From Urechis unicinctus (taxonomy: Eukaryota > Annelida > Polychaeta > Xenopneusta > Urechidae): DNA of 64,000 bases. The notes beneath the pieces are model-generated. The model ran no database searches. It had not been told where the DNA came from and was given only the letters and a program-made list of their open reading frames with translations. This document shows positions 15,207 to 64,000 of this stretch, in pieces (position 1 is the stretch's first letter; each line of letters begins with the position of its first letter). A program made the position numbers and the translations under genes. The stretch covers positions 23,125,475-23,189,474 of the forward strand of contig CM067348.1 in the NCBI GenBank assembly GCA_034190875.2, read 5' to 3'.

Positions 15207-15386
15207 AGAAGTGTTTGACTAACTTTTCCCTTCCTTCGTAGGAGTAACTAGGGATCATCCCGGATAAGTCTCAGCTCACACCAAGTGGGTTAAAGTTAGA
15301 GGGGTGCCTCTTAACTGCTTACCCAGTACTGTGAGCAACGCGTCACTCGACTATTCACCAAAGGGAGTCACCATGGTAATCTTAGC

Positions 15387-15665: not shown

Positions 15666-15882
15666 TAAATACCATAGATCAATGGGCGACCGCCATTCTT
15701 ATCGTTAGACATAGAAAACGAGCTGATACATTACGAGAGATTGCTAAAGCCAAACCCTCTGTCAACAGGGCTTTGATTCACACGGCTGACAAAGAAGTGT
15801 CTATGTGAATGTACCCTCAATGTTTAAAAAGACTTAAGTTCAGAAGTGTAAATAAACCCGACACAAACAAGGTCGGCGCGTT

Positions 15883-16570: not shown

Positions 16571-16592
16571 TTGGACCTCATGGAAAAGTTAA

Positions 16593-16988
16593 GTGTGTAT
16601 TTTGACCCCGATGCACCGGCCGCGTATGGAGGGTGCAGCCGTTGGTCGAACTACGAAACTCAAAACAAAGGCAGTCAGACAATGGTTGGGTGAACAAGAT
16701 GCGTATTCATTACATAAACCGATCCGTCGTCGATTTCGAAGTCAACGCGTCATAGTAGGGGGGATTGACCATCAATGGCCAGCGGATTTAGTGGACATAG
16801 CCCGCTTAGCCAAACAGAACCAAGACATGAAATTTCTCTTCACCTGTATCGATGTTGTCTCGAAATATGCGTGGGTGATACCACTAAAAAATAAAACGGG
16901 AGTCAGTTTGATTCGAGATTATATTAAAAAGGTTACACTTCCAATTGGAGCGAAGATTCAAGTGGTTTGGATACCCTGCCAGTTTTAA
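16593..16988 (+). pseudogene. Polinton integrase part (fossil)
   Basis: The block LHKPIRRRFRSQRVIVGGID, then QWPADLVDIARL, then FTCIDVVSKYAWVIPLKNKTG is typical of the Polinton DDE integrase around its first catalytic aspartates. It lies just inside the inner right arm at 17149-17308, as expected for a gene near an element end. The copy is a fossil. Confidence 0.75.
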
Positions 16989-17148
16989 TAGTTGGGCAGT
17001 GGTGTGGAGGTGTACAACAACAGAGATCGTGAACAAAAGCGTTATTAGGATGGAAGATCAGAGAATTTATCGGGTGTGGACCATATTTGGACCATAGCTA
17101 GTTTTACATTGGCTTTTCTTGCTTATGCACGCTCTTCGTTATAGTACT

Positions 17149-17308
17149 GTTACTCACTGCCTGTAGTTGCTGGAGTGGGGACTAGCCAGAGGAAAGTCAA
17201 CGCGAGTCCTGGAGTAGAGTTGCTTATTTTGTTTATTTAGATTTCAATAATGAAGCTCCCTGGAATCTCGCGGTCCGAATCGTTTCTCTGACTAGGTGAT
17301 CTCCCCGT
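17149..17308 (-). repeat. Inner inverted repeat, right arm
   Basis: This is the reverse complement of 14529-14682, from GTTACTCACTGCCTG to GATCTCCCCGT, with scattered differences and small indels. Confidence 0.75.
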
Positions 17309-17479
17309 ATTCATATGCGAGGGTTGGTTATATAGCCCTTCGGGAGTACGATTTCCCTCGGTATTGGCGTGTCGTGCTGCGCTGATAATTAAGATGGGAG
17401 GGAGGGGGTACTCTATAATTAAGGTGTGAGGGAGAGGGTACTCTTAACTAATACAGTATTATAACAGTTACACTCACTT

Positions 17480-18480
17480 TTTTCCCAAGTCGATGTCACT
17501 CTCAACGAGAAACTCGTTTCCTCGTCCACCAACACCTATTCGTATCGCGCTTAAATGGAAACGCTATTGAGTTATGGTTCGGAAGCCAAAAACTCTCGGT
17601 TAACAGCTAGTTTATGGTACAAAGACACCCCAAAACACATGGACGCGTGGGTGGTACTCACAACAAGGGGATGTTAGCTAGAAAGGAACGAGCTCAAGAA
17701 AGTCGTATTGTGGAATTGATAGGCAAATTACATTTAGATTTATTTTGTCAAGAGCGCTATTTATTAAACGGCGTGGATTTGAAGTTAAGATTAGTACGCA
17801 GCAGTGACACCTTTGCCCTTATGGCAAATACTACAGATGGGTTTGCCTCTAAAATAGTTCTGCAATCCGTGACCTAATTCGTACACACAAAAATAAAGCT
17901 GAACCCCACCATGCGACTAGCCCACATAAAGGCTTTAGAACGAAGCCCAGCTAAATACCCCATAAGACGCATAGAAACCAAAGAGTTTTCTGCATCTCAA
18001 GGAGCTATGACGATCAATCAAGAAAATTTATTTTTTGAAACAGTTACCCAAACGAATTGTAGTCGGAAGTGTTGATAATAGGGCGTTCAACGGTGGTTAC
18101 ACTCATAACCCCTTCTACTTTAAGGATAACAACCTCACATTTTTAGCTCTGTACGTGGACGGGCAACAAGTACCCGCTAAACCCTTACAACCCGATTTCA
18201 ATCACCATATATACACCCGCAGTTATGCAAATTTATTCATTAGCACTGGACAACTCTTTCAAGAGGAAAGGAACGACATAAGTTGGAGAGATTATCCCAA
18301 TGGCTATACACTATTCGCTTTTGATCTGACCCCCAACCTGGCTGATAGTGGCACTCATTTTAATTTGTTGAAACGTGCGTTTGGAAATGCGTTTTGGTAC
18401 GGCCCTAGAACGTACCATTAATGTCATTGTGTACGCCGAATTCGAAAATATGATTCAAATTGACCGAAACCATAACGTTC
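17480..18480 (+). pseudogene. Polinton major capsid protein part (fossil)
   Basis: Blocks in order are an SSTNTYSYRA-like segment near 17520, FCQERYLLNGVDLKLRLVRS near 17750, a VVGSVDNRAFNGGYTHNPF segment near 18060, YVDGQQVPAKPLQPDFNHH near 18160 and VYAEFENMIQIDRNHNV near 18430. They match the double jelly-roll major capsid protein of metazoan Polintons. The copy is a fossil with several breaks. Confidence 0.75.
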
Positions 18481-18599
18481 TGTTTGATTACGCTGCCTAT
18501 CAATGGATACCAGGCAATTACGCGAGCTTTTACAAAAAGACGCTTTCACTCGAGCTACTGTGCGCGGAGTGTGCGCGGAATAAATTACCCCGCAATGTA

Positions 18600-18850
18600 A
18601 ATTACCCCAGCGGGTTTGCTTGTAACACCGATCCCGCTTCCAAACAAGGTGAGCAATGGGTCGCTTAGGCAAGGCAACTCGCCCCTGGTGTATTGATGAT
18701 CTGATGCTACCACTACAGCTCGGATGTGAGAGATCGAAAGTTTCTTTGCCTATGGGTCGTTATTTTCATTGATCATAATGAAAGAGGCGAATATTTTGAT
18801 TCTTATGGACTGCCTCCTATACATAACGTATTTGCGAAGTACTTGGACAA
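18600..18850 (+). pseudogene. Polinton adenain-like protease part (fossil)
   Basis: A CNTDPASKQGEQWVA-like segment and then GEYFDSYGLPPIHNVF match the cysteine protease (adenovirus protease family) that matures Polinton capsids. It ends close to the outer inverted arm at 18893. The copy is a fossil. Confidence 0.65.
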
Positions 18851-18983
18851 GCATTGTGTGAGCTGGAAAATATCGCACACGGAATCCTCATCGAAAAATA
18901 TATTGCACACAGAAATCCCTCAGCAAAAAATCACCTCAGCGTCGAGGGTCGAAGGTTACCTACGTCATACTCTATCAAATCAG

Positions 18984-19732
18984 GGGGTCCGAAGGGGTAC
19001 ATAATATTACTTATAACGTCATTCAACCAAAACAATATGTGTGATTTCTATTATGCTGGCGATGGAGTTTATGCGACGTTTGTTGTTCTACTAACCAGAT
19101 ACCAGTCCGCGCTATCGTGGGCCACAGAGTTGTTTTCAGAATAAATACATAATACATATCCTTTTTGCGGTTACACCTCATTATGACCTTCTATCCATTT
19201 ATGGTTACACAAGTAAGGCCAATTGGGAAACATAATGTATTTACTTTCCATGATGATAGAGACTAATCAACACGCTAAAGGGCAGGACGCATGATCATAT
19301 GGTCGACAAAGTGGTCAACCCATAAACGTCGCCATTGTATTCTTGGTTTTGTTTTTGCGTTTGGTTTTTCCAAATCATTAGTCATAATTACTTTACTACC
19401 ACTCATTTCATGTTACATATCCAGACAACAGATAAATGCTTTACCAAGCATGGGGTATTTGAGTTCACGAAGTAGGTTTATATCTCCGCACCTATACCGG
19501 CGACAGTGACGCATGGTTCACAATCATGCGTAGATGTTATGAGATAGACAGAAAATGGGAGGAATGGTACATGCATGGGACAGGGAGTAAGTGCTTTAAA
19601 TAATATATAAACAATGCGGATTTATTTATTCGGGAACGCCGTTGAGTAACATGAGTAAAACTTGCTGATTAATTCCGCACCGACATTGATGTAGAAATCA
19701 TAACGCTCGCGGGCCACGCCAATATGCCCCGT
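18984..19732. other. Non-coding stretch upstream of exchanger gene
   Basis: No supported gene or recognisable repeat was seen. The stretch separates the Polinton fossil from the TATA box of the SLC9A-like gene and presumably includes its upstream regulatory DNA. Confidence 0.5.
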
Positions 19733-19819: not shown

Positions 19820-35183
<15,364 letters not shown>

Positions 35184-35599
35184 AAGCATGTGATGGCAAC
35201 TGTCGTAGGGTAGTCCGGCCATACAGTGTAAGATGTACCTCTAATTGCTGCTTATAGCAGATAAGTGAACAGCTTGGACTAATGTAGATAAGTGGACTGG
35301 TGTCTGGTTGGCTGACTGGGTCAAGGGCCGCATGGCACTAAGGGCAGGTGGCTTGCTGGTCCGGTGGAAAGGAGTGTCAGAGCGACAGTGGAGTGGGTGT
35401 GGTGTCGCTGAGCTGGTGTCAGGAAGGGTGTGGATGTGTATTTGGGGGTTGAAGTTATAGGTTTGGGTGTGTTAAAGTGTGGTGTGCCCTGTGGTGGTGT
35501 GGTTTGTTGTGGTGTGGTATGGTTCAGAGCTATTTATGTGTAGGGGTCAATGGGTTCCTTGCATGGGATGTGGTTGTCTGATGTGTATGTGGGTCTGTG

Positions 35600-36105
35600 T
35601 AAGACCTCACATGGGGTGAAGTGTGGTGCTGTGTATGTCTGTATGAGACCTCACATGGGGTGAAGTGTGGTGCTGTGTATGTCTGTATGAGACCTCACAT
35701 GGGGTGAAGTGTGGTGCTGTGTATGTCTGTATGAGACCTCACATGGGGTGAAGTGTGGTGCTGTGTATGTCTGTATGAGACCTCACATGGGGTGAAGTGT
35801 GGTGCTGTGTATGTCTGTATGAGAGACCTCACATGGGGTGAAGTGGTGCTGTGTATGTCTGTATGAGACCTCACATGGGGTGAAGTGTGGTGCTGTGTAT
35901 GTCTGTATGAGACCTCATATGGGGTGAAGTGTGGTGCTGTGTATGTCTGTATGAGACCTCACATGGGGTGAAGTGTGGTGCTGTGTATGTCTGTATTAGA
36001 CCTCACATGGGTGAAGTGTGGTGCTGTGTATGTCTGTATGAGGCTTGGCATGGGGTGAAGTGTGGTGCTGTGTATGTCTGTATGAGACTTGGCATGGGGT
36101 GTGGT
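35600..36105. repeat. Minisatellite, 44-bp unit, about 11 copies
   Basis: Highly regular copies of a unit containing GACCTCACATGGGGTGAAGT start about 415 bp after the exchanger stop codon. Copies are almost identical, so the array is young. Confidence 0.97.
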
Positions 36106-36599
36106 TCTGATATAGTTTCATTCGGTGTCAGCTCCAGTTATGGTGAGGGGTTTGAAGACTACCACATCCAGGTCTACGTGCGGCTTTATCTCAATGTGCG
36201 GCATCCCGTCGTATAAACCTTCTGCATTCTCTGTGCAAACAACTCCTCAATAATTGATTAGCAAGCAGGCATTAGAAACTTACCTCTATCCAGCAGAGAT
36301 TGCCGTGACAAATCTGAACTAATTACTGTCAAATCAGCTATATTCTTCCTACTTCTTTCTTAGCTCAGCTTACTGATACCTATCTGTATCCCATCCATCC
36401 TGGTGACTACAGACTGTTTAGATGACAGCTATGAACGCAAAGCTCTTCTGATGAGGCAACATGGTTGGCTGAAATTCCTCATGTGTCAACAACCGTCATC
36501 GTATCTTCAGTCTGTAGTCAAGATAATCAGACTTCAGAATTAATTATCTTTCCTGATTTATGTAGTATTTCTGTATAATTTGATAAAGTTACTCATACC

Positions 36600-36765
36600 C
36601 TGACCCTTATACATAACCCTGTATTGTTATATAATGACCATGTATGGTTATAGATAACCCTGTATGGTTATAATGACCCTGTATGGTTATAGATAACCCT
36701 GTATGGTTATATAATGACCTTGTTTGGTTATAGATAACAATGTATGGTTATATAATGACCCTGTA
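36600..36765. repeat. Minisatellite, unit about 20 bp
   Basis: Imperfect copies of ATAACCCTGTATGGTTAT lie in tandem. Confidence 0.9.
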
Positions 36766-37682
36766 TTTTACATTCTCATAAGCTAAGAGCCTCAACTAGC
36801 TGTTCCATTGTCTTTGATCTTGATACATCTTATGATTCATGCTGGCCTCATGGCCGCGTTGATCTGTCTTCTCTGGGATGATACCCTCTGGATTATAATG
36901 AAGCACTAACTTCTCTTGCTAATGAACTACCTGTCTTTGGTACAAAGAGCCACATCACTGCCACTTTATTACCGTGTATGGAGCAGTCTTCATTCGAAGC
37001 ATGGCTTCTAGGCTATCATCATTCAGTATGAGACATCGTGATAAGGCTGGGCATCACTGCATGTTGTGACTCTTGTTGTTACCTCTCTTCCTTTCATTTT
37101 ATCAACAACCTCAATATTTTTATTTTATAGTGCAATCAAATACCATGATTTACTTTCTCATTACTTTCCTTGGATTGCTTACTTACCTTATTACATATTT
37201 AAACAATAATTTATGTATAATTTCATTAGAGATGTTCGTATAGATTCGATGCATTGCTATGCAGCCTTGAGGATTGACTTAGAACGTTTAATTTGTGTTT
37301 GCATGTTGCCTTTATGTCATTGCTCGTGTTGACATTACGAGTGTCAATAACCCCCCTCTCTTCTTACAGCCACAGCCTGCCACAGATTTTGAATTGAACA
37401 TATGAGATGCAGCAGGTACTCCCATTGTTCTACCTCTTCTTCATCAGCTATATTTGCTGACTCAGCACACTATCCACCTTGCGTTCACAAGCTTTTTGTA
37501 TTCTGAATTTAGAGCTCCTTGGATTGCATGGTTGGCTGTGTAATTATTGTCTTAGTTGGTATTGCCTGATTTAGGGTGGTTATATGTGGGCACAGTTGCA
37601 CTTGACCTTGGCGTACACATTGAACCAACTCTCTCTCTCTCTTCTCTCCCCTAATCATTCGATATATCTCACCCTTATTATA

Positions 37683-38078
<396 letters not shown>

Positions 38079-39007
38079 TTGTGCCTTTCTCCCTCTCTCA
38101 TCAGTCAGCTCTCTGTCATCTCTCACTAATAAATGAGTGGTCACCTACTATATGGCTATCTCTCTGTCCTGATTCTGTCAGGGAATGTTGGATATTATGT
38201 TCTCATAGACATTGCCTCTCATGGCATTCGTTAATGGTGTCAGAGCCACCTGTTTGGTGACAGCATTTTCTCATGTGCTGCTTACCTTTGCTTGGCTGAC
38301 CACCTAATTACTGCTTATGCACCTTTTATGCGTCAGTCACAGAAACTGGCGACTTATCGATTTCACTTTCTTTGTTACGTTTTCAAATATTGGATTATGG
38401 GTATATTTTCTGCTAACATATGTGTGTATTATACGTATGATGGGTTGCTTGATGTCCAGGTTGCTGTGAATACAGAGGATGTTGCCATGGCTACTCGTGT
38501 GCGTGTGCCTGGCCTTCCTGGACATCCTGTGTGAAGTCTCTAGCTCACTGCATCACCATCGATTCCATAGAACCCGCTCATCTTCTGTTGATATGCTAGA
38601 CAGCAGCTCTAGTGCTCTGTGATTCATTGTACATATTTATAGGCAAGTCATTGTGGGAATCAGGCAATGGATAATTGTTAAAGAGCAGTTGTGAAAATGT
38701 TGCTGTGCTGGATATGTGCATTATAGTTGTGGCTGTCTGCTTTCCTCATTCTTAAGATGTCAAATATTGCATCATACCATATTTATGCATTCACATTGGG
38801 TCAACTCCTGTGTGTGTGTATGTGTGTGTTTGAAAGGAAATGACAGAGTGCTCTTGTGAAATGGCAATCTTTTTATTAGTAGTATTAAGCAGAAGATCTC
38901 TTATTAACTTGGCCAAGTTATAGGGTGTATGTTGTTTGTTTTGACCTGTGCCCAGCCACAAAGTTCAATGTCAGTTACTGACCTGTGATAAATGAATGTC
39001 AACTGCA

Positions 39008-51260: not shown

Positions 51261-51504
51261 GAACTTAAAAAATTCGCGATTCATATCTACCATTCTCTAA
51301 ATAATTGTCAGTTTTCACAAGCATTTTGAACTTAAAAAGATCGAGATTCATATCTCCCATTATGCAACACTTTTTTTCTTTCGCTGTTTATCTTGTATAG
51401 TATTTCTAAGACAGTGGTTGACAATATCGGAACCAGTAGTATAGATGGTAGCGGTACTGGCACACCTATCTCATATGATTATGGCACACCTATCTCATAC
51501 GGGT

Positions 51505-51626
51505 GCAACCCAGAAAACACACATATACAGGGTGACTCACATGAGCCAGCGAACCGCTCGCACCTCCCCCCCACCATATGGTACCATATGAGCCCAGCCC
51601 TTCCAGCCCCTATGGTATAGGCCCAC
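51505..51626 (+). repeat. Terminal inverted repeat, left
   Basis: Starts GCAACCCAGAAAACACACA and ends GGTATAGGCCCAC. It includes the self-complementary CATATGGTACCATATG block. Its inverse is at 63864-63989, differing mainly in G-run length. No target-site duplication could be confirmed. Confidence 0.9.
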
Positions 51627-51660
51627 TAAAGAGGGCGACAGCAATGTCAACCATCTACAA

Positions 51661-51840
51661 CAGGACCCTGAGGAATAAGCTCTTCTAAACGACTCACGCG
51701 CTCCAAAAGGTCCTCATACTTCGATTCCAATTCCCTCACCTTCTCCTCTACACCAGGACCCTGAGGAATAAGCTCTTCAAACGACTCACGTGCTCCAAAA
51801 GGTCCTCATACTTTGATTCCAAATCCCTCACCTCAATCTC
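51661..51840. repeat. Tandem duplication, about 91-bp unit
   Basis: Two copies starting AGGACCCTGAGGAATAAGCT lie in tandem. The unit encodes part of a coiled coil on the minus strand, so the duplication lies in or beside a small gene. Confidence 0.9.
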
Positions 51841-51918
51841 AAGGTCCACCTTCTTCTCCCATATATGTTCCACATCTGCTTGCAGCTCGGCCACCCCAAT
51901 ATGTTTATCGGTGCTCAT
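51748..51918 (-). CDS. Small coiled-coil peptide of the Polinton-like element
   Basis: A 56-codon minus-strand frame starts MSTDKHIGVAELQADVEHIW and continues with heptad-like ESKYEDLLEHVSRLK. The second repeat copy just beyond could encode a similar helix (ESKYEDLLERVSRLEEL). The function is unknown; a coiled-coil oligomerisation role is only a guess. Confidence 0.4.
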   Translation of the reverse strand: MSTDKHIGVAELQADVEHIWEKKVDLEIEVRDLESKYEDLLEHVSRLKSLFLRVLV

Positions 51919-51991
51919 TCTATACCTCAGCTCTCATATGTTCAACATATCGACGCGTGCCCATAGGCCAGAGTGTCTACACCACCTGGAG

Positions 51992-54533
51992 CTATCCACC
52001 TCTTTGAGTCAAAGGGGGAGAGAGACACCTTGTTAACGTGAACCCATATATTTTATGGCAGTCACTCCTGAGCATGTTCATTCCGTGGCGAAACTGCTTT
52101 TGGGCGAACAGTGACTCCACGTACTGAGCGTGTCGTAGATGCTTCTTCACCACCACCTTCTTCACACCCTTAGCTCTTTTTATCTCGCCCTCATCAGACA
52201 TCAGGATAGAGTACATTTTAGGGCGCAAACCAACGTACTCCTTGATGGGCACACCAGCGCACTCATCCTTCATCTTACCCAGAACCTTTTTGTTTTTGTC
52301 ACTGTGCAGGGCATGAGAAGGGTCAAAGTTACTAGTGTCAAAGAGATGCCCATCCTCCCTCATATCAGCATAGACGTCAGTGGTACGGATCTCAAGCAGC
52401 AGCGAGTCTGTGTCTGTGTAAAGCAGGTTAATATTACTGTCATATCTAGCCTTCATGGTATTGTAGTAAAAGTCATACATCAAGTGCTTGGAGAGGTCCA
52501 GAATGCACATGCCACCGTAGACCGGACGGTTCAGCACTAAGCGAGTCTTGTGCATATGCAGGGCAGCTAGATCATCGTCAAACACTTTTTGTCGAGCATA
52601 GGCGGGGCTGGCCACAAGCCTACGTATTTTTTCTTTTTCCGATGAGCGCACAATCTTGACGTCGACTCGCCTCCGGAGATTCTCCATCCATTAACCAAAG
52701 ACGGAGTTATTCATAGGTTTATAGAGATCCTTCTCAAAGTCGCTGTTGGCGGCCTTGCGCAGATCTGTATTCATCCTTATGTAAGGCTCCATCCATGGAC
52801 TCTGGTCAAAGACAAGCGCACGATGAATCTTGGTGAGTCTCAACCCCAAAGACAGATATAGCTTGAGGTTCCTGTAGTGTACCACATACTTCTCCTTGTT
52901 CCGCAGGTTGGGCACCAGCTTTTCAACTCCATTTCCGGTGCTTCCCAATGCACCTAGGAGATCTTTCTGGTAGTCTGACAACCACTCATTTTGCACAAGA
53001 AGCCGCTCCGGCGCTAGGGGGTAATCGTTGTGTTCGTCATGAAGCGCAGCAGGATACTCCAAGTCAACCTCAAGAATATACCCTGTTTCAGCATCATCGG
53101 GATGGTCCTGGATCTCTAGGTTCTCAGGCCGTTCCACCCACTCAATACCCGAAGTAGGTAGGGCTTGGCTCATCGCCCACCCATACAGGTTGTTGGCATC
53201 GAGGTACTGGATATAGCTCGCTGGCTTATCGGCATAGATAAGATAGGGGACGGCAAGCTGTTTCTGCCAGTTCTGGAAGGATAATATGTTCTTCCCTTCC
53301 TCAGGCATGTCAACTCGCACAGCAGTCTGCCCGATACCCATGCACTCAAGTTTGTGCGCCAGGAGCAGTTTCTCAGTGGTGTATCCATGCAAGCATCGCT
53401 CGCAGAAGAACTTGCGGTGCTCGTACTTACTCTGGTCATACAGCAGGCGGTTCAGGTCTTCGATCTGCGTGTAATGAAACCTACCCTCCTCCTCAATCAG
53501 CATGAGGTTTATACATGGACCAGGCTGTCTGTTGATACGGTGAACGATGGTGGCCTTTCCATCCCAGCCAAAGACATTCAAGCCGCCTACTTTAGCATGT
53601 TGTTCTATCTTCTCAATCTGCGAGATAGGTGTTGGATAGTCCACGCCTTTTCCTTCTAAGAGTCTTAAGAGCGGCTTAATGTTATATTTCGACGACGACG
53701 TCGCTGCGGGTTCTTGGCAACCGGGTGCAGAGCCGCTTCAATGGAATATAGAACGCAGTGTGGGTCGTTTGTGTTTTTTTAACGTTTCTAATTGCCTTCT
53801 TTACCGCCAGCTTTCTCGGCAGTTTCAGGTAGGAGCCACCTTTCAATGGCTGGTAGTTGGCAATATCAATCCACAGAGTTGTGACCGCCTGAAACTCCCA
53901 GCCAGAACCTTGGTTGGTCCACTTCTCCAACTGCTCTTGGATATTAGCATTGCACTGGTCCAGCTCATCGTTAATATCTTCTAGGGAGAGAACCACCTGT
54001 TGCTTATTATGCAATACAGGCTCAAAATACTCAGTGCTGTCATCATCGGCGTGCTTGGAGAGTCTTACCTTAAGGGCAAACTGACACTTGATTCCACCTA
54101 GCTCTTCCAGCTCACCAGTCAAAACTTTATGCATCTTCCGACGCATGCCCTTAAAGAACATCATAAGGTCCGAGCTAAGGGGGTGAGACTCAGGAACGTT
54201 CATCACCAATCCACGCAAATAGTTTTTAACAGCCCACTTAGTCTTCTTGAAGGCAAGACGCGCTCTGGGGACTGGGGACTGGGTTGTGGGGATGCGTGGG
54301 GCAGGGACAGGTCTGCGTGGGGCAGGGACTGGTCTGCGTGGAGCAGAAGTGGGGACAGGGGTGCGTGCCACCCCAGCCTTTAATCTAGCCAACATCTCAT
54401 TGTATGTACGGTCATATTCATTACGCACTTGGAGTGCTTTGAGTGCAGCCTTAGAGCGTGGATAAGGAGGCTGAAAACCGTGAATTGAAACATAATCGTT
54501 TTGGGCTTCACGTGCTCGCTGATTATGAGTCAT
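51992..54533 (-). pseudogene. Protein-primed type B DNA polymerase (fossil)
   Basis: Parts in order on the minus strand are a basic N-terminal region with ANYQPLKGGSYLKLPRKLA, a zinc-ribbon-like segment (FFCERCLHGYTTEKLLLAHK), the palm block LDANNLYGWAMSQ, MNNSVFGKTMENL, and the catalytic YTDTDS motif. This is the Polinton-type family B polymerase that copies the element. The gene is a fossil with about two breaks. Confidence 0.85.
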
Positions 54534-54819
54534 GTTTACTATACAGTTCCATTAGTCTAAAAGGGAATTCGTTGATACACAAAAGGCAACAACAATACAG
54601 CGAGCGGACTTTGACCTATGCAGTAAACACCCGTCTCTGACAAGGTGCCAAGCTTCGTCGCACATAGGCGCCGCCAAACCATGTTGTTGACAGCGCCACA
54701 AGATTTCTATTTTTATTCAGTGGGGAATCCCCGTTCAGTGGCGCCGACTGGCGTGTCCCCAGCTATAGGCCGTTGTGAAACAATTTTTTGGGGCAAGACG
54801 AAGACAACTGTGGTTGACT
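54534..54819. other. Gap between PolB and Cys-rich ORF
   Basis: No gene was recognised in this stretch, which probably includes the promoter region for PolB. Confidence 0.4.
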
Positions 54820-54999
54820 TTATCCTACCTTATTATTTTTTATAGCCTTCTGACAACCCGTACAAAGACGATTAATCACACCATGTTTTATCTTATATCT
54901 GTGTAATCCACAAAACTCTTGCTCTTGCGTACAGGGCCTGTTACAGGGGACTTTCTTTCCGAGCAATATCCATGGGCACTTATTGTCAAATACTACCAT
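54820..54999 (-). CDS. Cys-rich zinc-binding-like protein, 59 aa
   Basis: A complete small frame runs from ATG at 54999 to TAA at 54820. It begins MVVFDNKCPWILLGKKVPC and continues NRPCTQEQEFCGLH. Metal-ligand candidates are C8, C19, C23, C30, H33, C46 and C49 (a final CTGC pair), enough for one or two zinc sites. It sits between PolB and integrase. Small Cys-rich proteins with a GKxVPCxxPC-like motif occur in related viral elements, but I cannot name a function. Confidence 0.5.
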   Translation of the reverse strand: MVVFDNKCPWILLGKKVPCNRPCTQEQEFCGLHRYKIKHGVINRLCTGCQKAIKNNKVG

Positions 55000-55025
55000 T
55001 GTTATATATATAGATATCTATTAGT

Positions 55026-56021
55026 CTAATTGATAATACCGTCTAGCGGCAACTGGGTATCGGACGGCACCACAAACAACTCCTCGTTTACAAAACCACG
55101 GAGAGGTCCATCCAGCAAATAGTATAGTACAGGCTCACCAGATTTAGTGACAGAGCTTCCAATCCGGTAAACATTGAGTGACCACACAGGGTCAGTGGCC
55201 CGCCGCCGGTGGTCTTGCTCTGCCTCACCAGGCTGGTAGAGGTAGCAAACGCCAACATCAGAGGGAAGCTTTTGCTCTTTGACTCCCAGAGGGCGCCCTG
55301 GTACGACTGCAGAGGGTTTTTGTGCAACTCGTTTTGCCTTTATAGCATCTTTAGGTTTTTTCCCAGTCAAGCGGGTCACCTCATTATTTATCGCAGAGAC
55401 TACAGCCTGCAGTCGAGAAACCCACTCAGTCGATCGTTTTCCAGTATCCCTTAACTCTACGGCATACTGGTGACCAAAGAGTCGTTCAGCAAGGGTTCGG
55501 TTAAAGCGTTCTACTATACCCTGGTCTCGATGGATATTCACACGGCCACGCCTGACTGATACTCCATGTTTTACTAACAGCTGATTCGCTGCACCCATAA
55601 ACTCCCGTCCGGGGTCCACCTGAAGTAGTTTAGGCCAATGCAGCGGTCCTCGTTTGTATATCCTCTCAAGCGCACCTGCGACCTCCTTAGCCTCTTTTGT
55701 AGTCAATGGCTCAGCCGCTTTGTAGCGCGAGGCCACATCAACCAATGTTAGGGCATACTTATAAGTGCGGCGCTTCACAACGTCATGAGGAAGGAATAAG
55801 AGATCGGCTTGGTGAACCTCATTAGGGACAGGGACATCAAACTTTGGCCTGGGAATGTGTTTTGGCACCGGCAGGTAGATTTGCCATATAGCTTGCTTTG
55901 TTAGCCACCCCCTGGCAACTTCCTCAGAAACCCTCGCTTCTGTTGCAAGCTTCTTGATAGCTGTAATGCCTTTCCAGTATCCCTTAGGACTATAGTAGAT
56001 CTTTTGCATGCGACGATCCAT
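55026..56021 (-). CDS. Polinton-like DDE integrase, 331 aa
   Basis: The frame looks whole. An N-terminal helical region (SEEVARGWLTKQAIWQIYLP) precedes the catalytic core with HQADLLFL (first Asp), LLQVDPGREF (second Asp) and DQGIVERFNRTLAERL (Glu), the last pair about 34 residues apart as in retroviral-type integrases. A C-terminal region (VWSLNVYRIG, then LRGFVNEELFVVP) resembles the SH3-like or chromo-like tail. It would cut the element ends and join them to host DNA. It is part of an element that is broken overall. Confidence 0.85.
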   Translation of the reverse strand: MDRRMQKIYYSPKGYWKGITAIKKLATEARVSEEVARGWLTKQAIWQIYLPVPKHIPRPKFDVPVPNEVHQADLLFLPHDVVKRRTYKYALTLVDVASRYKAAEPLTTKEAKEVAGALERIYKRGPLHWPKLLQVDPGREFMGAANQLLVKHGVSVRRGRVNIHRDQGIVERFNRTLAERLFGHQYAVELRDTGKRSTEWVSRLQAVVSAINNEVTRLTGKKPKDAIKAKRVAQKPSAVVPGRPLGVKEQKLPSDVGVCYLYQPGEAEQDHRRRATDPVWSLNVYRIGSSVTKSGEPVLYYLLDGPLRGFVNEELFVVPSDTQLPLDGIIN

Positions 56022-56051
56022 ATACAGAAAACGTTCGAGTCTCCAAATGAC

Positions 56052-56474
56052 CTACTTAGCAAGCCTGTATGCAACCAGCCCAGTCGCAGCCATACCCAGT
56101 ATAATGAACGCCACCTCACGCCCCCTCTGTTCATCTGAGGGCTCGTAGCAGTCTGAAAGTTGCGGCTCAGAGCCCAACGGGTCGACGGTTTTATTCGTAG
56201 TCAGGGAGTACTCACGCATAGCCTCGTCCGCATCCTTAAAAGTATGCTCGGCGTGCCCCTGGCGGCGTAGTTGCTCATTGATGAAGTCTAAGCGCTCAGT
56301 TCTCTTCTTGGCCCATGCTGCCTGAGCAGATTGAAGCTGCTCGATTGCCATATCATGGCGTTTACGTTCCGCGTCCACTTGGCTGCCTCGTAATTTAGAG
56401 AATAAAAAGTTGCTCCCAGAGAATGCAAGGTCATTAACAAAAGCTCCCCCAACAAGTAGCGCGAGTGTGGCCAT
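56052..56474 (-). CDS. Small membrane protein, 140 aa (unknown)
   Basis: The N-terminus is hydrophobic (MATLALLVGGAFVNDLAF), the middle is a charged, probably coiled-coil helix (EQLQSAQAAWAKKRTERLDF), and the C-terminus is a membrane segment (FIILGMAATGLVAYRLAK). Its ATG overlaps the stop of the next gene upstream (TAATG at 56474), which suggests coupled expression. I recall similar proteins beside integrase in cnidarian and molluscan elements, with no known function. Confidence 0.55.
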   Translation of the reverse strand: MATLALLVGGAFVNDLAFSGSNFLFSKLRGSQVDAERKRHDMAIEQLQSAQAAWAKKRTERLDFINEQLRRQGHAEHTFKDADEAMREYSLTTNKTVDPLGSEPQLSDCYEPSDEQRGREVAFIILGMAATGLVAYRLAK

Positions 56475-56713
56475 TACTTCAGTATATCAACTGGTAAGAT
56501 TCCTTGTTTAATTAGCATATCCTTTGTGGCCATAGCTAGTGATACATCAGAAACAGCCATAGCCAGGTCCCGTGGGGTGAAATCAAGACGTGGCACCCCG
56601 CCACCCAGAGCCATCTTAGCAAGCTTGGCATAACCTATTGAAATACCGGAAACAACTACACTGTGGTACAGAGCGTTGACGAGCATTTTTCCATCAGTAA
56701 TTGGTGTTGTCAT
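56474..56713 (-). CDS. Small hydrophobic protein, 79 aa (unknown)
   Basis: The frame runs MTTPITDGKMLVNALYHSVV to KDMLIKQGILPVDILK. Its middle contains hydrophobic helices (SGISIGYAKLAKMAL, MAVSDVSLAMATKDML). The pattern ALYHS...AMATKD.LIKQGI..DI recurs, from memory, in many cnidarian and molluscan hypothetical proteins, so it is probably a conserved element protein. It overlaps its downstream neighbour by one base. Confidence 0.55.
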   Translation of the reverse strand: MTTPITDGKMLVNALYHSVVVSGISIGYAKLAKMALGGGVPRLDFTPRDLAMAVSDVSLAMATKDMLIKQGILPVDILK

Positions 56714-56714
56714 C

Positions 56715-57003
56715 TTATTCCATATAAAACGGATCCTTTAAATGAGCGTCTGGAGGCTTTTGTACCACAACCTGTTTAGGGTGTGAGGCTACCATCTGGT
56801 GCCTGTAGCAATACAATGCAAACACGCCAACACCGCCGACAACCAAAGGCACAGCCCATGTTGGCCACGTCCACCTTTCCAGAGGTTTGCTCGTTGATAT
56901 TGGCTCGACAGCTTCGTCTCTACCATCTGTAAGCGCTGCCTTAGCCTCTCGGAGCTCTCTCAGAAGCTTATTTTGATTGGCTTTTCGAGCTGCAGCACCC
57001 TTT
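56715..57003 (-). CDS. Short single-pass membrane protein frame
   Basis: An open frame of about 95 codons ends two bases before the ATG of the 79-aa gene. It has a charged helix (NKLLRELREAKAAL), a membrane segment (WAVPLVVGGVGVFALYCY) and a short tail ending DPFYME. A start codon is not clear; the 22-bp tandem repeat at 57007-57083 lies where one would be expected. Confidence 0.4.
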
Positions 57004-57006
57004 CGT

Positions 57007-57083
57007 CATGCTATAGCGGAGTTAAGCACATGCTATAGCGGAGTTAAGCACATGCTATATCAGAGTTAAACACATACTATAGC
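57007..57083. repeat. 22-bp tandem repeat, 3-4 copies
   Basis: Copies of CATGCTATAGCGGAGTTAAG with diverging later copies span the junction between two element genes, covering the 3' end of the 223-aa frame. Confidence 0.9.
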
Positions 57084-57748
57084 GCCGAAGTGATGTCTTC
57101 CTCTCCACCGGCCCCTGTTGTTTCGGTGCTTGTTTTTCCAAATTGACAGTGCTTAACTGTTGTTAAAGCCGCAGTTAAGGGAGCTAAAAACATACCATAG
57201 CGATGATAAAGCTCACAAGTGGCAGTGCTTAGCGCGTGTCCAACAAACGGATCCGTCTTGAGGTCTGTAATTAGCCTTGGCTGGTGTTCTGGTGGGATTG
57301 GTAGAAACATACAAGCAATACCTGAGTACAGCTGTAGCAGTGTCTGACCTAGAGTGCGCGTCATGCTAGCGCCTAGCCGAGACTCGTATCTCACATACAG
57401 CTTTATGATCTCTTCATCAGACATTGATTGAACCTGGTCAATTGTAAGGTGCTTCAAACCAAGGTACTGACGGGCCTGACCACCGGCTATGACGGCAGCA
57501 AGCCTATCTCTCTTAGAAGACATATCTACACTAGGGATGCAACTAGGTTCCGCTCCCCCAGACTTTGTCTCCACTAAGCTAGTCGAGTCCTGTTCAAGGA
57601 GTTTATCAATAATGGTATCAGGATCCATGAATATACGTATACGCCTTCGAGCTTCAAAATACTGCACCGCTACCCAGATGAAGAAACCTAAATTGATTAC
57701 TGAGGCAGCGGCTGCTATCAAGGCCAATATCACTTCAATCGACGGCAT
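57077..57748 (-). CDS. Membrane-anchored protein, 223 aa (unknown)
   Basis: An N-terminal membrane helix (IEVILALIAAAASVINLGFF) is followed by a basic segment and a soluble domain containing MSDEEIIKLYVRYESRLGAS and a GQTLLQLYSGIACMFLPI segment. Its start overlaps the ATPase-like frame by about 14 bases, as in compact viral gene blocks. I recall similar proteins in cnidarian and molluscan elements. A structural role (minor capsid or membrane protein) is a guess. Confidence 0.55.
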   Translation of the reverse strand: MPSIEVILALIAAAASVINLGFFIWVAVQYFEARRRIRIFMDPDTIIDKLLEQDSTSLVETKSGGAEPSCIPSVDMSSKRDRLAAVIAGGQARQYLGLKHLTIDQVQSMSDEEIIKLYVRYESRLGASMTRTLGQTLLQLYSGIACMFLPIPPEHQPRLITDLKTDPFVGHALSTATCELYHRYGMFLAPLTAALTTVKHCQFGKTSTETTGAGGEEDITSAL

Positions 57749-58014
57749 ATGCAGTAGGCTGATCAGTCTTCAGCAGCAGTTTTGCGTGCTTGGTCTTTGC
57801 TAGTAGTTGGCGTACTGTGGCACGTTCCTCCTTTGTTGGAATTACATCATTTTCACGTAAGGCGTCTTCAAACGAGTCACGGTCCGTGGTGTGAAAGAGC
57901 ACCATCCAGCGAGTCTGCTCACGTAAGTCCTTCAGCACAGAGTTTTACTTTTGGGTGAGGACCCAGACACTTTGCTGCGCACGGCGGCCGCTAAAGGCCA
58001 GTTCGGATAACATG
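57735..58014 (-). pseudogene. Packaging-ATPase-like part (fossil)
   Basis: The residues ELAFSGRRAQQSVWVLTQ, then LKDLREQTRWMVLFHT, then RDSFEDALRENDVIP and LAKTKHAKLLLKTDQP match, from memory, the segment after Walker B in A32/FtsK-like packaging ATPases of cnidarian and molluscan Polinton-like elements. The Walker motifs are not seen in the window. A LINE lies immediately beyond it. The part is a fossil. Confidence 0.5.
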
Positions 58015-58568
58015 TCTTTCTTCTTGGTTAGGGACCCCCAGTGGGTGCGGGGGTAGAATAGGCCTACTGTATCCTCCTGCATGTCGTAAGAGGCGACTAA
58101 TAGGGGGCAACCTGTTGGCCGTGGGTTGCGACTCGTGTCGGTGGAAGATGGAATCCTGGTGGTTGAGTGGAGCGGTCCTTGCGAGGGCTATATCTGCAAC
58201 ACACCACTTTGGCCCGGATTTCACCTAGACGAGAGGCTGGAATGGCCTGGTCCAGTCAATCGGCTTGTGGTGACATGCCATGGGATATTTGTTTTCATTA
58301 CTTACTGCTTTTTCATTCCACTTCTTGTCATTCATTCTTATCCACATGGTTTTTTCCCTTTTCTTTTTCATTTATCCCTGGCGGCTGCTTAACAGGTCAA
58401 TTGAGTTGATGTGTGAACAGCTCTTTGAGCTTTTTACTATTAATTTGAGTATTACACTGGTGTATCCCTGGCGTCATGTGTGCTGGTTGAGCCGCACACC
58501 GCTGACGCCCCCATGTTTGGCTCCATGGTGGGTGGGGAGCACCAGTGAAGAAATTTTATCATAATATC

Positions 58569-59806
58569 ATGGCTCATAAACAAACTCAAGAAAGATTATC
58601 TTCTAAACGGACTAGACCCAATGAAACGGACTCTGACTCGGACAAAGATCTTTGCTCCTCATGGCCAAGATTCTTGGTTTTAACTTCTTCTAATCCAGAG
58701 AGACCCTTGACATCTCTAAGTCCTTTTGCAATTAGTAAAGGGATTGAGGGGTTGGCTGGTGTCGCCAAAAACATTAGGAAAATACAGTCTGGCAGCTTGC
58801 TTGTTGAAGTTGATCGACCCAGCCACGCGAGTTGCCTACTGAAATCAGTACTTCTCGCGGGCATTCCAATGCAAGTCACCCCTCACCGAACCCTCAACAC
58901 CAAAAGAGGAGTAATTCGATGTTTTGATTTGAAAGAATGCGAGGTCTCTGAAATTATTAACGAGTTAAAACCACAAAGGGTAATCGATGCCAAAAAAATC
59001 ACCGCAATGGGACTCGACAAGCCACGGGGACGGTTATCCTGACCTTTGACAGCTCTGAATTGCCTAAAGCTGTCAAGGTCGGATACTTGAATGTCTCCGT
59101 GGACCCCTACATCCCAAACCCCTTGCGCTGCTTCAAGTGCCAACGTTACGGACATGGTAATTCAACCTGCAAAAGAACTGCAGCATGTGCGAAGTGTGGA
59201 CAGGAGGACCATAAGGAAGATGACTGCCTGCAGACCACCAAATGTATCAATTGCTCAGGGGACCACCCAGCATTCTCTAGGTTGTGTCCTACATGGATCA
59301 AGGAAAAACAAATCCAAACGATCCGACACACCAGAGACATCTCGTTCCCTGAGGCACGAAAGATAGTGGAGGCACATCAGGGCACCAAACCCTGTTATGC
59401 TAGCGCTGTCAAAAAGGCCACAGTGTCAGTCGACACCCAGACCGACTACACGTGGCCAAATGGCAGCGCCCAGCCAAAAATGGTGACCATTGATGTGCCA
59501 AAACCTGCTACTACTACCAAGAAGGCAAAAGATATGTCAACGCAGTGCAGTCCTCCTGTCCATCCTACTGTTTACAAAAAACCCGATGAGACTAGTAAAA
59601 AAACTGAAACAGTAATAACTAAAGTAAAAACTCATAATCATAGACCTCCTAAGGGATCCAAGGATCCCATAAAATTGCATAATAAATACGGCAGCCTAGA
59701 GGAGATGGACATTGACAGTGTCCGTCTTCCCTCTAAACCCACATCTGCCCCTAACAGCCCAAGGCGGAAGCCTCGGGCTTCAACCAATCTCCCCAATGTC
59801 ACCTAG
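58569..59806 (+). pseudogene. LINE ORF1 (zinc-knuckle RNA-binding protein)
   Basis: The frame from ATG 58569 (or 58545) encodes an RRM-like region (NIRKIQSGSLLVEVDR), then shifts by one base near a G-run at about 59025. The downstream frame carries three zinc knuckles: CFKCQRYGHGNSTC, CAKCGQEDHKEDDC and CINCSGDHPAFSRLC. A Lys/Thr-rich tail ends at TAG 59804-59806. This protein binds the LINE RNA to form the retrotransposition particle. Confidence 0.85.
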
Positions 59807-62800
59807 CATCATCCAATGGAACTGTCGAGGATTTCGGTCCAACTATGACGAACTCAAATCTCTTTTGTATGACCATCAACCTATTGCTGTTAGCCTTCAG
59901 GAAACTTTCTTGAAGGAGACTGATCAAATGTCAATGAGAGGGTATACCATGTATAATAAAACAACTTTATCACAAAGAGACGGAAGAGCTGTGGGAGGGG
60001 CATCTGTGCTTGTTAAAGACGGTGTCCCCCATGAACCCATTTCTCTTGACACGCCTCTTCAGGCTATAGCCATTAGAATTACCCTCCACAAAACCATCAC
60101 TTTGTGCTCTCTGTACCTACCACCAAGCTACAAGATTTTACAGAGAGACATTGATCATTTGATCAGTCAACTTCCATCCCCACTTTTGCTGCTTGGCGAT
60201 TTCAATGCCCACAGCGATTTATGGGGATGTGAGGACACCAACGACAGTGGTCATAAGATGGAGAATTTCATCATACAAAATGATCTTGCTATATTAAATA
60301 ATAAATCTAAAACTTATCTCCATCCTGGAACCGGATCTTTCTCTGCCATAGACCTTAGCCTCTGCTCTCCATCTCTTTTGATGGAATTTGATTGGGAAGT
60401 TGGTCAGGACCAGTGTGGAAGTGACCACTTTCCAATATTTTTAAATATCAATAGGCCTATGCCCGCTGAGCGGGTATCCAAATGGAAACTCCATAAGGTC
60501 AACTGGCCGAATTTTACTTCTATGTGCAGAGACATTATCAACAAAGATACTTTAGAAAATATTGATGAAGATCCGGTATCCTTTTTTACAGAATCAATAA
60601 TTAATATAGCCACACAAAATGTACCGAAATCCTCGACGGATTCTAAACGGATATATAAACCACGGTTTTCTGATGCATGCCGTGACGCTGTCAAAGAGCG
60701 CAAACGGGCACTGTACAGGTTCAAAATGCGGCCCACTGAGGCCAACAAAAACCTGTACAAAGTAGCCCGAGCCAAAGCTCGACGCGTCATCAAAAGCAGC
60801 AAGCGTGAGTCTTGGCACGATTTTGTTTCGAAATTAAACAGCAAGACTTCCACGGAAATGGCATGGGACATGGTTCGTAGGATTAGGGGAAAGCAAAATG
60901 ACAACACTCTCTCACATCTGGTTAAACCAGATGGTTCCAAAGCCTCCAATTTGAAGGACATTGTCAATACTCTAGGCGATGCCTTCCAAAAGAATTCCTC
61001 TGCCAATAATTATAGTACCAAATTTCAAAAATTTAAACATCATCGGGAATGAAACATTCCTAATTTTAATTCAAATAACCATGAAAATTACAACTCTCTT
61101 TTTACACTAAAGGAGTTGGAGGATTCGATACATAAATCGAATGACACAGCTAGTGGACCCGATGACGTACACTATCAATTTTTAAAACACCTTCCAGAGG
61201 AATCACTTGAAGTACTTTTAGACATTTTTAATGGAATCTGGGAATCTGGAACATTCCCAGATGGTTGGAGAGAGGCTATAGTTATCCCGATACCCAAGCC
61301 AGGGAAGGATAACACCATTCCTACGAACTATCGTCCCATTGCCTTAACGAGCTGCATCTGTAAAACGATGGAGAAAATGATAAACAGCCGCCTGGTATGG
61401 TTTCTTGAAAGAAACCAACTAATTTCCAGGTACCAGAGCGGTTTCCGTCACACACGTAGCACGACGGATCACCTGGTCCGTCTTGAAAGTTTTATACGTG
61501 ACGGTTTTGTGAGGGGGGAACATGTGGTGTCGGTCTTCTTCGATATGGAGAAGGCCTATGACACCACATGGAAACATGGAATCCTGTCGGATTTGAGCAA
61601 TATGGGCCTTAAAGGCCGCATGCCTGTTTTTATCAAAAATTTTCTTGAGAACCGAATTTTTAAAGTCCGTGCTGGCACCACCCTTTCTGATACTTGTGAT
61701 CAGGAGATGGGGGTCCCACAGGGAAGTATTTTATCCGTTACACTTTTTAATATCAAAATTAATAGTATAGTTAATGTCATCAAGCCAGGTGTGGATTGTT
61801 CACTCTACGTGGATGATTTTTTGATTTATTTTAAATCGAAAAAAATATGAGCACAATTGAGAGGCAGCTTCAACTTAGCCTCAATAACATCCAAAAATGG
61901 GCGGATGAAAACGGATTTAAATTCTCGAAATCAAAAACTGTCTGTATGCATTTTTGCAACAAAAGAAATATCCATCCAGACACAGTTCTCACCCTTGATG
62001 GCAATGTTATTCCTGTGGTAGAAGAAACCAAGTTTCTTGGAATAATTTTTGACAGGAAGCTCAATTTTAAAGCTCACATTTCTTACCTGCGTAAGAAATG
62101 TTTTAGAGCAATCAATCTTTTAAAGATGTTGTCCAATACTGATTGGGGCGCGGACCGGAAAGTCCTTTTACGGCTTTACCGGTCACTAGTGCGCTCCAAG
62201 TTGGACTATGGCTCTTTTATATATGGTGCTGCCCGTCGCTCATATCTAAGAAAATTGGATACTGTCCAAAACCAAGCTCTGAGGCTTTGCCTCGGGGCTT
62301 TCAGAACCTCTCCCATTCCCAGTCTACATGTGGAAACCAACGAGGCACCACTTGGGGTTCGAAGGAAGCAGCTTGCCATTCAGTATGCCTTACGCATAAG
62401 GTCCAACCCCAAGAATCCAGCATTTGATGCTGTTTTTAATCCTGATAATATCCATTTTTATGAGAGTAGGCCGAATGCTATCCCTTCGTTTGGTCTGCGT
62501 ATCAGAGAATCGCTGTATGGGTCATGCTCTAACTTGAATGCAGTGGCGGTTGAGACTGTGCCAGTGTCTCCCCCATGGCAATTGAAAACCCCAACAGTGG
62601 ATAAATCGCTGACAACCAACACGAAGGGATCTCACGAGCCTGATTTTTTCCTTCACCAATTTAGAGAGATAAAGGATAAATATTCGGACCGTTCTGCCCT
62701 TTACACAGACGGTTCGAAAGAAGACAATAAAATTGGAGCTGCAGCCATTATGGGGAAATGTGTTTTTAACATGAGCCTACCACCTCCACTGTCAATTTTC

Positions 62801-63493
62801 CACGCTGAGCTTAAAGCTCTTTCCATTGCACTTGGACTTATTGCCAAATCCAGTAAAAAGCGTTTCGTTGTATTTTCCGACTCACTGTCTGCCCTGGAGG
62901 CAATCACAGGGAGTAATTTACGTAATGGTTTTATTTTAAATGTTGTGCTTTTATATTCTCAATTGACAGATCGTGGCAAGGATATTTTGTTTGTATGGGT
63001 ACCAAGCCATGTTGGTATCCCTGGTAATGAAAGGGCAGACAGAGCTGCCAAGGAAGCCCTCAACATGAATGTGACTGAGGTTAAAGTCCCCTTTACAGAC
63101 TTTAAACCTCAAGTCGTCCAATTTTTTAAACAGAAATGGCAGGACCAGTGGGATGAATCCATCCCAAACAAACTTCACGAAATTCAGCCCTTACTTGGGG
63201 AGTGGCCACAGAGCTGCAGAGAGAGCAGAAGAGAGGAGGTTATTCTTGCTCGCGCTCGTATAGGACACACCTATACAACTCATGCCTTTCTACTAAGGGA
63301 TGAGCCCATCCCTGAATGCATTCCTTGTCAATGTACCTACACCGTCAAGCACATTCTCATCGAATGTGCTGATTTGATTTTGATCCGAAATCGCTTCTTC
63401 CGGGTTCAAACCCTTTCAGAATTGTTTGAAAGGGTGAATCCATCCAAGATACTTGGATTCATAAGAGAAATTGGACTTTTCTATAGATTTTAG
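59796..63493 (+). pseudogene. LINE ORF2: endonuclease, reverse transcriptase, RNase H
   Basis: ORF2 starts at ATG 59796, inside the last codons of ORF1. The APE-type endonuclease has WNCRGFRSN, LQETFLKE, LLLGDFNAHSDLWG and GSDHFPI. The RT has IPIPKPGKDNTIPTNYRPIA, FFDMEKAYDTTWKHGIL, MGVPQGSILS and catalytic YVDD near 61806. RNase H has YTDGSKED (62703), HAELKALSIAL, FSDSLSALEA and WVPSHVGIPGNERADRAA, keeping the D-E-D-D set. A CxxC...HxxxxC finger lies near the end (CIPCQC, then HILIEC). A TGA at 61050-61052 and a frame offset near 61845 break it; otherwise it is intact. Confidence 0.92.
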
Positions 63494-63629
63494 ACCATAC
63501 AATTCTCAAATTATTATATATAATTCAATTAATATAATTCAATTAATACTAATGGGTTTAATTTTTAGTTAGTTTTAACCCTTGATTCCTTCTTATCCTT
63601 TCGTACTCGTATTTACCCCTCCTTAAGTA

Positions 63630-63694
63630 GGCACCATATAACACACTAGCGTTGGTGTGCCGTTAAACCCTATACTTACCTTACTTACCTTACC
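63630..63694 (+). repeat. LINE 3' terminus with stem-loop and CTTACC tail
   Basis: CACAC and GTGTG can pair around a short loop, followed by GCCGTTAAACCCTA and ACTTACCTT repeats. The same terminus occurs at 33077-33133, 48940-48994 and 50408-50467, so it is probably the signal the reverse transcriptase recognises. Confidence 0.8.
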
Positions 63695-63702
63695 TCTTTA
63701 CG

Positions 63703-63855
63703 ATGAGATTGATAACCGCTCGTCCCGATCCCGACTTTAACGAGAAGAACGACGCTAAGGTTGCCCAGTTTATACAGGACCTCAACCGCGTGAAAAATGG
63801 AACTTACAGCGACGGTCGCAGATATTTAACACTCAATGACCTCTATGGTGACTAA
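63703..63855 (+). CDS. Small ORF next to right terminal repeat, 50 aa
   Basis: An ATG at 63703 opens a frame reading MRLITARPDPDFNEKNDAKV, then AQFIQDLNRVKNGTYSDGRR, ending TAA at 63855. It is the only plus-strand gene of the Polinton-like element and sits 9 bp from the inverted repeat. It is charged and soluble. I do not recognise it. Confidence 0.4.
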   Translation: MRLITARPDPDFNEKNDAKVAQFIQDLNRVKNGTYSDGRRYLTLNDLYGD

Positions 63856-63863
63856 CTACTGGT

Positions 63864-63989
63864 GTGGGCCTATACCATAGGGGCTGGGGGGGCTGGGCTC
63901 ATATGGTACCATATGGTGGGGGGAGGGGGGGTGCGAGCGGTTCGCTGGCTCATGTGAGTCAGCCTGTGTGTGTGTGTTTTCTGGGTTGC
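63864..63989 (-). repeat. Terminal inverted repeat, right
   Basis: This is the reverse complement of 51505-51626, from GTGGGCCTATACCATAG to TTTTCTGGGTTGC, with longer G runs and a TG-rich patch. The element ends about 11 bases before the window does. Confidence 0.9.
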
Positions 63990-64000
63990 TGTATTAGATT

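What the first reader, a model, noticed from the sequence alone, without database searches (positions are those of the whole stretch)
51505..63989. Compact Polinton-like element with PolB and integrase but no recognised capsid or protease
Both ends are present as about 125-bp inverted repeats. Apart from the LINE inserted in it, the element is only about 6.8 kb, against the usual 15-20 kb of Polintons. It carries PolB, integrase, an ATPase-like part and at least five small unknown proteins. Its proteins look unlike those of the Polinton at 13.6-19.0 kb, so it is a separate lineage. The capsid may be unrecognised, lost, or never present.
Basis: partly seen in the sequence, partly recalled or inferred. 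Interest (0 to 1): 0.85.

Follow-up and report, generated by a model that had tools for sequence, protein, structure and literature searches.

The report
Broken hybrid copy of capsid-bearing Polinton
The apparently compact, capsid-less mobile element is a decayed and rearranged copy of an ordinary virus-like Polinton; longer copies in the same genome still carry a capsid gene, so this is not a new kind of element.

Summary
The inverted repeats, PolB, integrase, ATPase piece and small proteins are real, but this is not a compact or capsid-less lineage. The same assembly holds many copies of the family. Right halves of two longer copies match the window on both sides of the LINE and contain about 6.5 kb that it lacks: the rest of the packaging ATPase, a capsid gene (Pfam Capsid_N, just under its cut-off), a fibre-like ORF and a YqaJ exonuclease frame. 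Capsid-gene sequence lies beside the ATPase in 16 of 16 sampled copies. The window copy also has a private PolB deletion of about 1.12 kb (only the window, among 40 scored matches, spans the junction), frameshifts and stops. Its two terminal repeats are of different subtypes and no target-site duplication flanks it; five of five other copies with both ends in hand have matching subtypes and a 5-bp duplication. It is best read as a hybrid of two Polinton copies meeting at a LINE. No adenain-like protease was recognised in what I scanned. The finding is ordinary; the size and freshness of the family are the more notable point.

The parts
51435..51626 (.). Left terminal inverted repeat, subtype A, beginning AGTAGT; flanking bases before it GGAACC
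51650..51933 (-). Broken coiled-coil-like ORF with a 93-bp duplication and a frameshift
   Evidence: direct repeats D2, D3; translations
51957..54533 (-). PolB pseudogene in several pieces and frames; stop codon at 52691-52693; internal deletion of about 1.12 kb at about 53233
   Evidence: tblastn against the PolB pieces of L001; comparison with L040, L042, L044, L045; private junction
54823..54999 (-). Small cysteine-rich ORF beside PolB; weak similarity to an ORF beside PolB in L001
55026..56021 (-). Integrase (rve), 331 aa, frame open, residues D73, D136, E171 present
   Evidence: Pfam 2.3e-8; 4379 homologues; alignment columns
56052..56474 (-). 140-aa ORF, predicted all-helical
   Evidence: single-sequence model, mean pLDDT 71
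56474..56713 (-). 79-aa ORF, no family
56718..57005 (-). ORF without an upstream ATG in frame, probably truncated; a hydrophobic stretch
57077..57748 (-). 223-aa ORF, conserved in relatives, predicted all-helical
   Evidence: 272 homologues; model mean pLDDT 78
57735..58034 (-). C-terminal remnant of the packaging ATPase, TAA at 57945-57947; the part with Walker A and B is absent
58034..63693 (+). LINE (endonuclease, RT, RNase H) standing where other copies hold about 6.5 kb with the capsid genes
63694..63863 (+). Tail (ORF 63703-63855) of a longer frame that in other copies lies downstream of a YqaJ exonuclease frame
63864..64000 (.). Right terminal inverted repeat, subtype B; continues 32 bp beyond the window to ACTACT, then AAGGGG

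Best explanation
A dead, rearranged remnant of a standard capsid-encoding Polinton/Maverick family that is abundant in this genome. Longer copies reach 14.6-15.0 kb. One half carries PolB, integrase, small membrane-like proteins and the packaging ATPase; the other carries the capsid gene, other virion-like genes and an exonuclease. They presumably copy themselves by protein-primed PolB, package with the ATPase and insert through the integrase (established Polinton biology, not tested here). The window copy has lost the capsid half, an internal piece of PolB and several reading frames (shown). Its ends belong to two different subtypes and are not flanked by a duplication (shown). The simplest history is that two Polinton copies were joined across a LINE, for instance by recombination between LINE copies, or by a LINE-associated deletion plus exchange of one end (inferred).
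For: Right halves of two longer copies flank the LINE collinearly and contain 6.5-6.6 kb that the window lacks. ATPase: full gene 216 aa with Pox_A32 at 1.4e-10 and 3.1e-11, above the cut-off. Capsid gene beside it in 16 of 16 sampled copies, full-length ORF in 5 of the 14 taken for that purpose. PolB junction spanned by 1 of 40 scored matches, the window itself, with about 1.12 kb present there in 4 of 6 other copies. End subtypes A/B and no duplication in the window, against matching subtypes and a 5-bp repeat in 5 of 5 pairs. Left remnant 98.4-98.5%, right remnant 92.5-93.9% identical to the same two copies.
Against: Capsid_N stays just under its curated cut-off (21.1-23.0 against 24 bits); the 330-aa and 230-aa C-terminal capsid pieces of L025 and L024 match no Pfam family, and no solved capsid was matched convincingly. 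The sampled copies were chosen for an open ATPase frame, so they cannot show how many copies lack the capsid half. The LINE junctions were not searched for in the genome because the tool was busy. The window ATPase remnant on its own does not match Pox_A32.
Confidence: 0.93

Rival explanations
1. A genuine compact, capsid-less Polinton lineage (the finding's title) that moves with PolB and integrase only.
For: Integrase frame and three other frames (140, 79 and 223 aa) are open; capsid-less Polintons exist, 9 of 72 in PMC4028283 (section 4 read).
Against: PolB broken; an ATPase remnant remains; the PolB junction is found in no other scored match; capsid sequence in 16 of 16 sampled copies; mismatched ends and no duplication.
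Confidence: 0.02
2. A single Polinton insertion that lost its capsid half by a LINE-associated deletion, without a second copy being involved.
For: The LINE stands exactly at the deletion and no LINE target-site duplication was found near its ends.
Against: The two ends are of different subtypes and unequal divergence and lack the 5-bp duplication. Gene conversion of one end could imitate the first point but not the missing duplication.
Confidence: 0.2
3. An assembly error joining two copies.
For: The family is highly repeated, and the ends do not match.
Against: The PolB deletion and point lesions are not of that kind, and they lie away from the LINE. Reads were not available.
Confidence: 0.08
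4. The small proteins are an unrecognised capsid.
For: The 223-aa protein is conserved (272 homologues) and shares contig lengths over 5 kb with integrase (8) and with the ATPase (6) relatives.
Against: The 223-aa and 140-aa models are all-helical; no fold match at E 0.001 or better for the 223-aa model; a separate capsid gene exists in other copies. The 79-aa and 96-aa ORFs were not modelled.
Confidence: 0.02

Closest known systems
Polintons / Mavericks of vertebrates (PMC8097293; passages and sections 6 and 7 read)
   Same: rve integrase, PolB, packaging ATPase, capsid gene, (AGT)2 end motif, size 12.7-24.6 kb for intact elements, most copies degraded (96%)
   Different: The target-site duplication reads as 5 bp here against 6 bp there; gene order differs (integrase beside PolB and ATPase on one strand); no protease recognised; the window copy is broken and lacks the capsid half
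Capsid-less Polintons (9 of 72 in PMC4028283; section 4 read)
   Same: The window copy has no capsid gene, protease or complete ATPase
   Different: There the loss is described for Repbase consensus elements; here it is a rearrangement of one copy, and an ATPase remnant remains. That study set aside elements under 10 kb as incomplete
Mavirus PolB without exonuclease domain (PMC11071308; passages read)
   Same: The window PolB also lacks the exonuclease region
   Different: A lineage trait in mavirus; private to one broken copy here

Membership tests
Polinton/Maverick | retrovirus-like (rve) integrase | tested here: met
   Pfam rve 2.3e-8; D, D, E present
[quoted passage not shown]
   Homology to PolB pieces of L001; no Pfam match for the pieces; gene broken in this copy. 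Protein priming itself was not tested
Polinton/Maverick | terminal inverted repeats with a short end motif | tested here: met
   AGTAGT...ACTACT; the (AGT)2 motif is that of PMC8097293 section 7
Polinton/Maverick | target-site duplication (6 bp in PMC8097293) | tested here: not met
   Window copy: none. Family: 5 bp in 5 of 5 pairs, read from the flanks printed; the script's exact 6-bp test failed in 4 of 4; the left end of a sixth copy (L021) was not found in the piece fetched (L050)
Polinton/Maverick | packaging ATPase | tested here: met
   Full gene in L024 and L025, Pox_A32 1.4e-10 and 3.1e-11; remnant in the window
[quoted passage not shown]
   Absent from the window copy (tblastn of six right-half proteins finds only the exonuclease-side tail). 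In other copies a 427-431 aa ORF, Capsid_N 6.6e-5 to 2.5e-4, just below the cut-off; fold not predicted
Polinton/Maverick | minor (penton) capsid protein | tested here: inconclusive
   227-229 aa ORF at L024:4261 and L025:4342 called penton-like from recall and position; no Pfam match
Polinton/Maverick | adenain-like protease | tested here: inconclusive
   No peptidase family in the ORFs scanned; left halves of longer copies were not scanned
Capsid-less Polinton (PMC4028283) | capsid, protease and ATPase genes all missing from the element | tested here: not met
   An ATPase remnant remains, and sampled copies of the family carry ATPase and capsid sequence
Compact capsid-less lineage (the finding) | the short form occurs as repeated copies | tested here: not met
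   PolB junction found only in the window among 40 scored of 2306 candidates; LINE junctions not tested because the tool was busy

The most novel reading that the evidence does not exclude
The family behind this remnant is a very recently amplified, perhaps still active virus-like Polinton, with hundreds or more near-identical copies and open ATPase and capsid frames, that works without a recognisable adenain-like protease.
Probability: 0.3. Interest if true: 0.5.

Novelty: new member of a known kind. Interest (0 to 1): 0.13.

Why it matters
It shows how a LINE, deletion and exchange between copies can mimic a new capsid-less mobile element: a short Polinton with both ends present should be checked for matching end subtypes, a target-site duplication and junctions shared between copies before it is called a lineage. 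The genome also offers a large, fresh Polinton family for studying how endogenous virus-like elements expand in animals.

Tried and rejected
Compact capsid-less lineage: rejected. Exonuclease-less PolB as a lineage trait, as in mavirus: rejected. Unrecognised capsid among the small proteins: the two modelled ones are all-helical and the 223-aa model has no fold match at E 0.001. The 67-aa ORF as a whole small gene: it is the ATPase tail. My first reading that the LINE begins at about 57945 was wrong; the ATPase continues to 58034 past a stop codon. The 50-aa plus-strand ORF as a gene of its own: it is the tail of a longer frame. A 6-bp target-site duplication: the script's exact test failed for 4 of 4 pairs; read by eye, 5 of 5 pairs share 5 bp.

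Searches that led nowhere: seven viral-contig scans with integrase, the 223-aa protein, PolB, the ATPase alignment and the capsid fragment of the other Polinton gave no relative. Genome contigs gave two contigs in prokaryote bins, L001 and L002. PDB searches by sequence gave no convincing match. Searches failed on input errors. The number of capsid copies and the uniqueness of the LINE junctions remain unmeasured.
Full report
What is in the sequence. They are longer than stated. Comparison with other copies shows that the element begins at 51435 with AGTAGTATAGATGG, and bases fetched beyond the window show the right end 32 bp past it, at ...ACTACT. Between the ends lie, on the minus strand: a broken coiled-coil-like ORF, PolB in pieces, a small cysteine-rich ORF, an open 331-aa integrase frame (Pfam rve 2.3e-8; D73, D136 and E171 present), three small ORFs, a 223-aa ORF and an ATPase remnant. 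Then come a plus-strand LINE (endonuclease, RT, RNase H) and a short plus-strand tail before the right repeat.

PolB is a pseudogene. Against the PolB pieces of L001, a contig from a prokaryote bin, the window shows matching pieces in different frames, a stop at 52691-52693, and a jump from the start of the exonuclease region to the first polymerase motif. Of six PolB pieces fetched from other copies, four (L040, L042, L044, L045) hold about 1.12 kb at that point; one (L043) was cut by its edge and one (L041) gave no match. A 120-base probe across the junction gave 40 scored matches of 2306 candidates: the window itself matches along its whole length and the other 39 stop at base 71. As far as scored, the deletion is private.

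The ATPase. The ORF that looked like a 67-aa gene has 140 homologues, whose longer members extend further to the N-terminus. Pfam Pox_A32 is found in 11 of 20 members of the alignment at E up to 0.05 (best 4.2e-4, below the curated cut-off; the window remnant itself is not among them), and PHROG 2666 (head and packaging) in 7 of 7 members scanned, 1.1e-5 to 9.4e-4. tblastn with five of these fragments runs from 57741 to 58034 through one TAA. The full gene in L024 and L025 is 216 aa with Pox_A32 at 1.4e-10 and 3.1e-11, above the cut-off. The three lists of relatives (best 120 each) share exact contig lengths over 5 kb: 8 between integrase and the 223-aa protein, 6 between the 223-aa protein and the ATPase, 1 between integrase and the ATPase, against 11, 3 and 1 pairs lying 1-50 bases apart. 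These genes therefore travel together.

The missing half. The terminal repeat has 40 scored matches (1247 candidates) at 98-100% and the ATPase 150 scored matches (3704 candidates); I saw an internal stop in one of those rows. I fetched only the right halves of two copies. Both align with the window up to 58033 and again from 63694; the 6495 bp (L024) or 6626 bp (L025) between are absent from the window, and the LINE stands in their place. That segment holds, from the ATPase onward, a capsid-like gene, a 197-231 aa ORF, a 439-aa ORF (split in L024), a 227-229 aa ORF that I call penton-like from recall and position, a fibre-like ORF (PHROG tail fibre 1.5e-6 over a short stretch), a 99-184 aa ORF and, in L024, a YqaJ exonuclease frame (3.1e-6); L024 has a further 227-aa ORF beside the capsid gene. 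In 14 further copies chosen for an open ATPase frame, 5 have a full-length capsid ORF of 427-431 aa, and all 14 have capsid sequence covering at least 293 of 431 residues; with L024 and L025 that is 16 of 16. Pfam Capsid_N is the best match of the five full-length ORFs (E 6.6e-5 to 2.5e-4; 21.1-23.0 bits against a cut-off of 24). The C-terminal capsid pieces alone match no Pfam family, and no solved capsid is matched convincingly. I call it the major capsid protein with good but not final confidence. No adenain-like protease was recognised in the ORFs scanned.

A hybrid. In five copies with both ends in hand (C166, C16, C15, C17; and C4 by L024 plus L049) both ends have the same repeat subtype (A in four, B in one) and are flanked by the same 5 bases (read from the printed flanks). 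For a sixth (L021) the left end was not found in the piece fetched. The window copy has subtype A at the left, subtype B at the right, and flanks GGAACC and AAGGGG. Its left remnant is 98.4-98.5% identical to L024/L025, its right remnant 92.5-93.9%. No duplication flanking the LINE was found. Recombination between LINE copies sitting in two different Polintons would explain all of this in one step; that step is inference, and an assembly join has not been excluded.

How the family works. From established knowledge of Polintons (PMC8097293, passages and sections 6 and 7 read; PMC4028283, passages and section 4 read; PMC11071308, passages read), linear DNA is copied by protein-primed PolB, packaged by the ATPase into a capsid and inserted by the integrase. 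Nothing of this was tested here beyond the presence of genes. The window copy has no intact PolB, ATPase or capsid gene; its integrase frame is open.

Relation to what is known. Capsid-less Polintons exist (9 of 72 lack MCP, protease and ATPase together; PMC4028283), and that study set aside elements under 10 kb as incomplete. In vertebrates 96% of Maverick loci are degraded and intact ones measure 12.7-24.6 kb (PMC8097293). The present copy belongs with the degraded ones. PMC11071296 and PMC6431247 were read in passages only and changed nothing. Whether this particular family is already described was not searched for beyond the listings.

Host. The genome has 1.19 Gb, and the contigs C1-C13 and C15-C17 seen here measure 50-91 Mb. 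Together with a relative of the integrase in a sea slug record (Elysia marginata) and others in bins named Candidatus Thiodiazotropha (from memory, symbionts of lucinid clams), this suggests a mollusc; this is inference.

Noticed in passing
whole assembly G000: The Polinton family is very abundant (lower bounds: 40 repeat matches, 150 ATPase matches scored; 1247-3704 candidates) and fresh (repeats 98-100% alike), with open ATPase frames in nearly all rows seen and full-length capsid ORFs in 5 of 14 sampled copies.
   Followed up: partly
L024, L025 and the window copy: No adenain-like protease was recognised, although a capsid gene and packaging ATPase are present; it may be hidden in an unassigned ORF such as the 439-aa one.
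   Followed up: partly
window 15300-19000: A second, much decayed Polinton-like element with integrase fragments (16593-16985) and frames at 18011-18665 that look, from recall, like a capsid C-terminus; no Pfam support for the latter.
   Followed up: partly
window 57006-57080: Three head-to-tail copies of a roughly 24-bp unit just upstream of an ORF without a start codon (56718-57005), perhaps another small disabling change.
   Followed up: no
L001 and L002: Contigs with Polinton-type integrase and PolB sit in bacterial and archaeal metagenome bins, as do many integrase relatives named Candidatus Thiodiazotropha: probably eukaryote DNA binned with prokaryotes.
   Followed up: no
window 20446-38200: Long arrays of tandem repeats with units of 8 to 44 bp and more, including large AT-rich palindromic stretches around 37.7-38.1 kb.
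   Followed up: no
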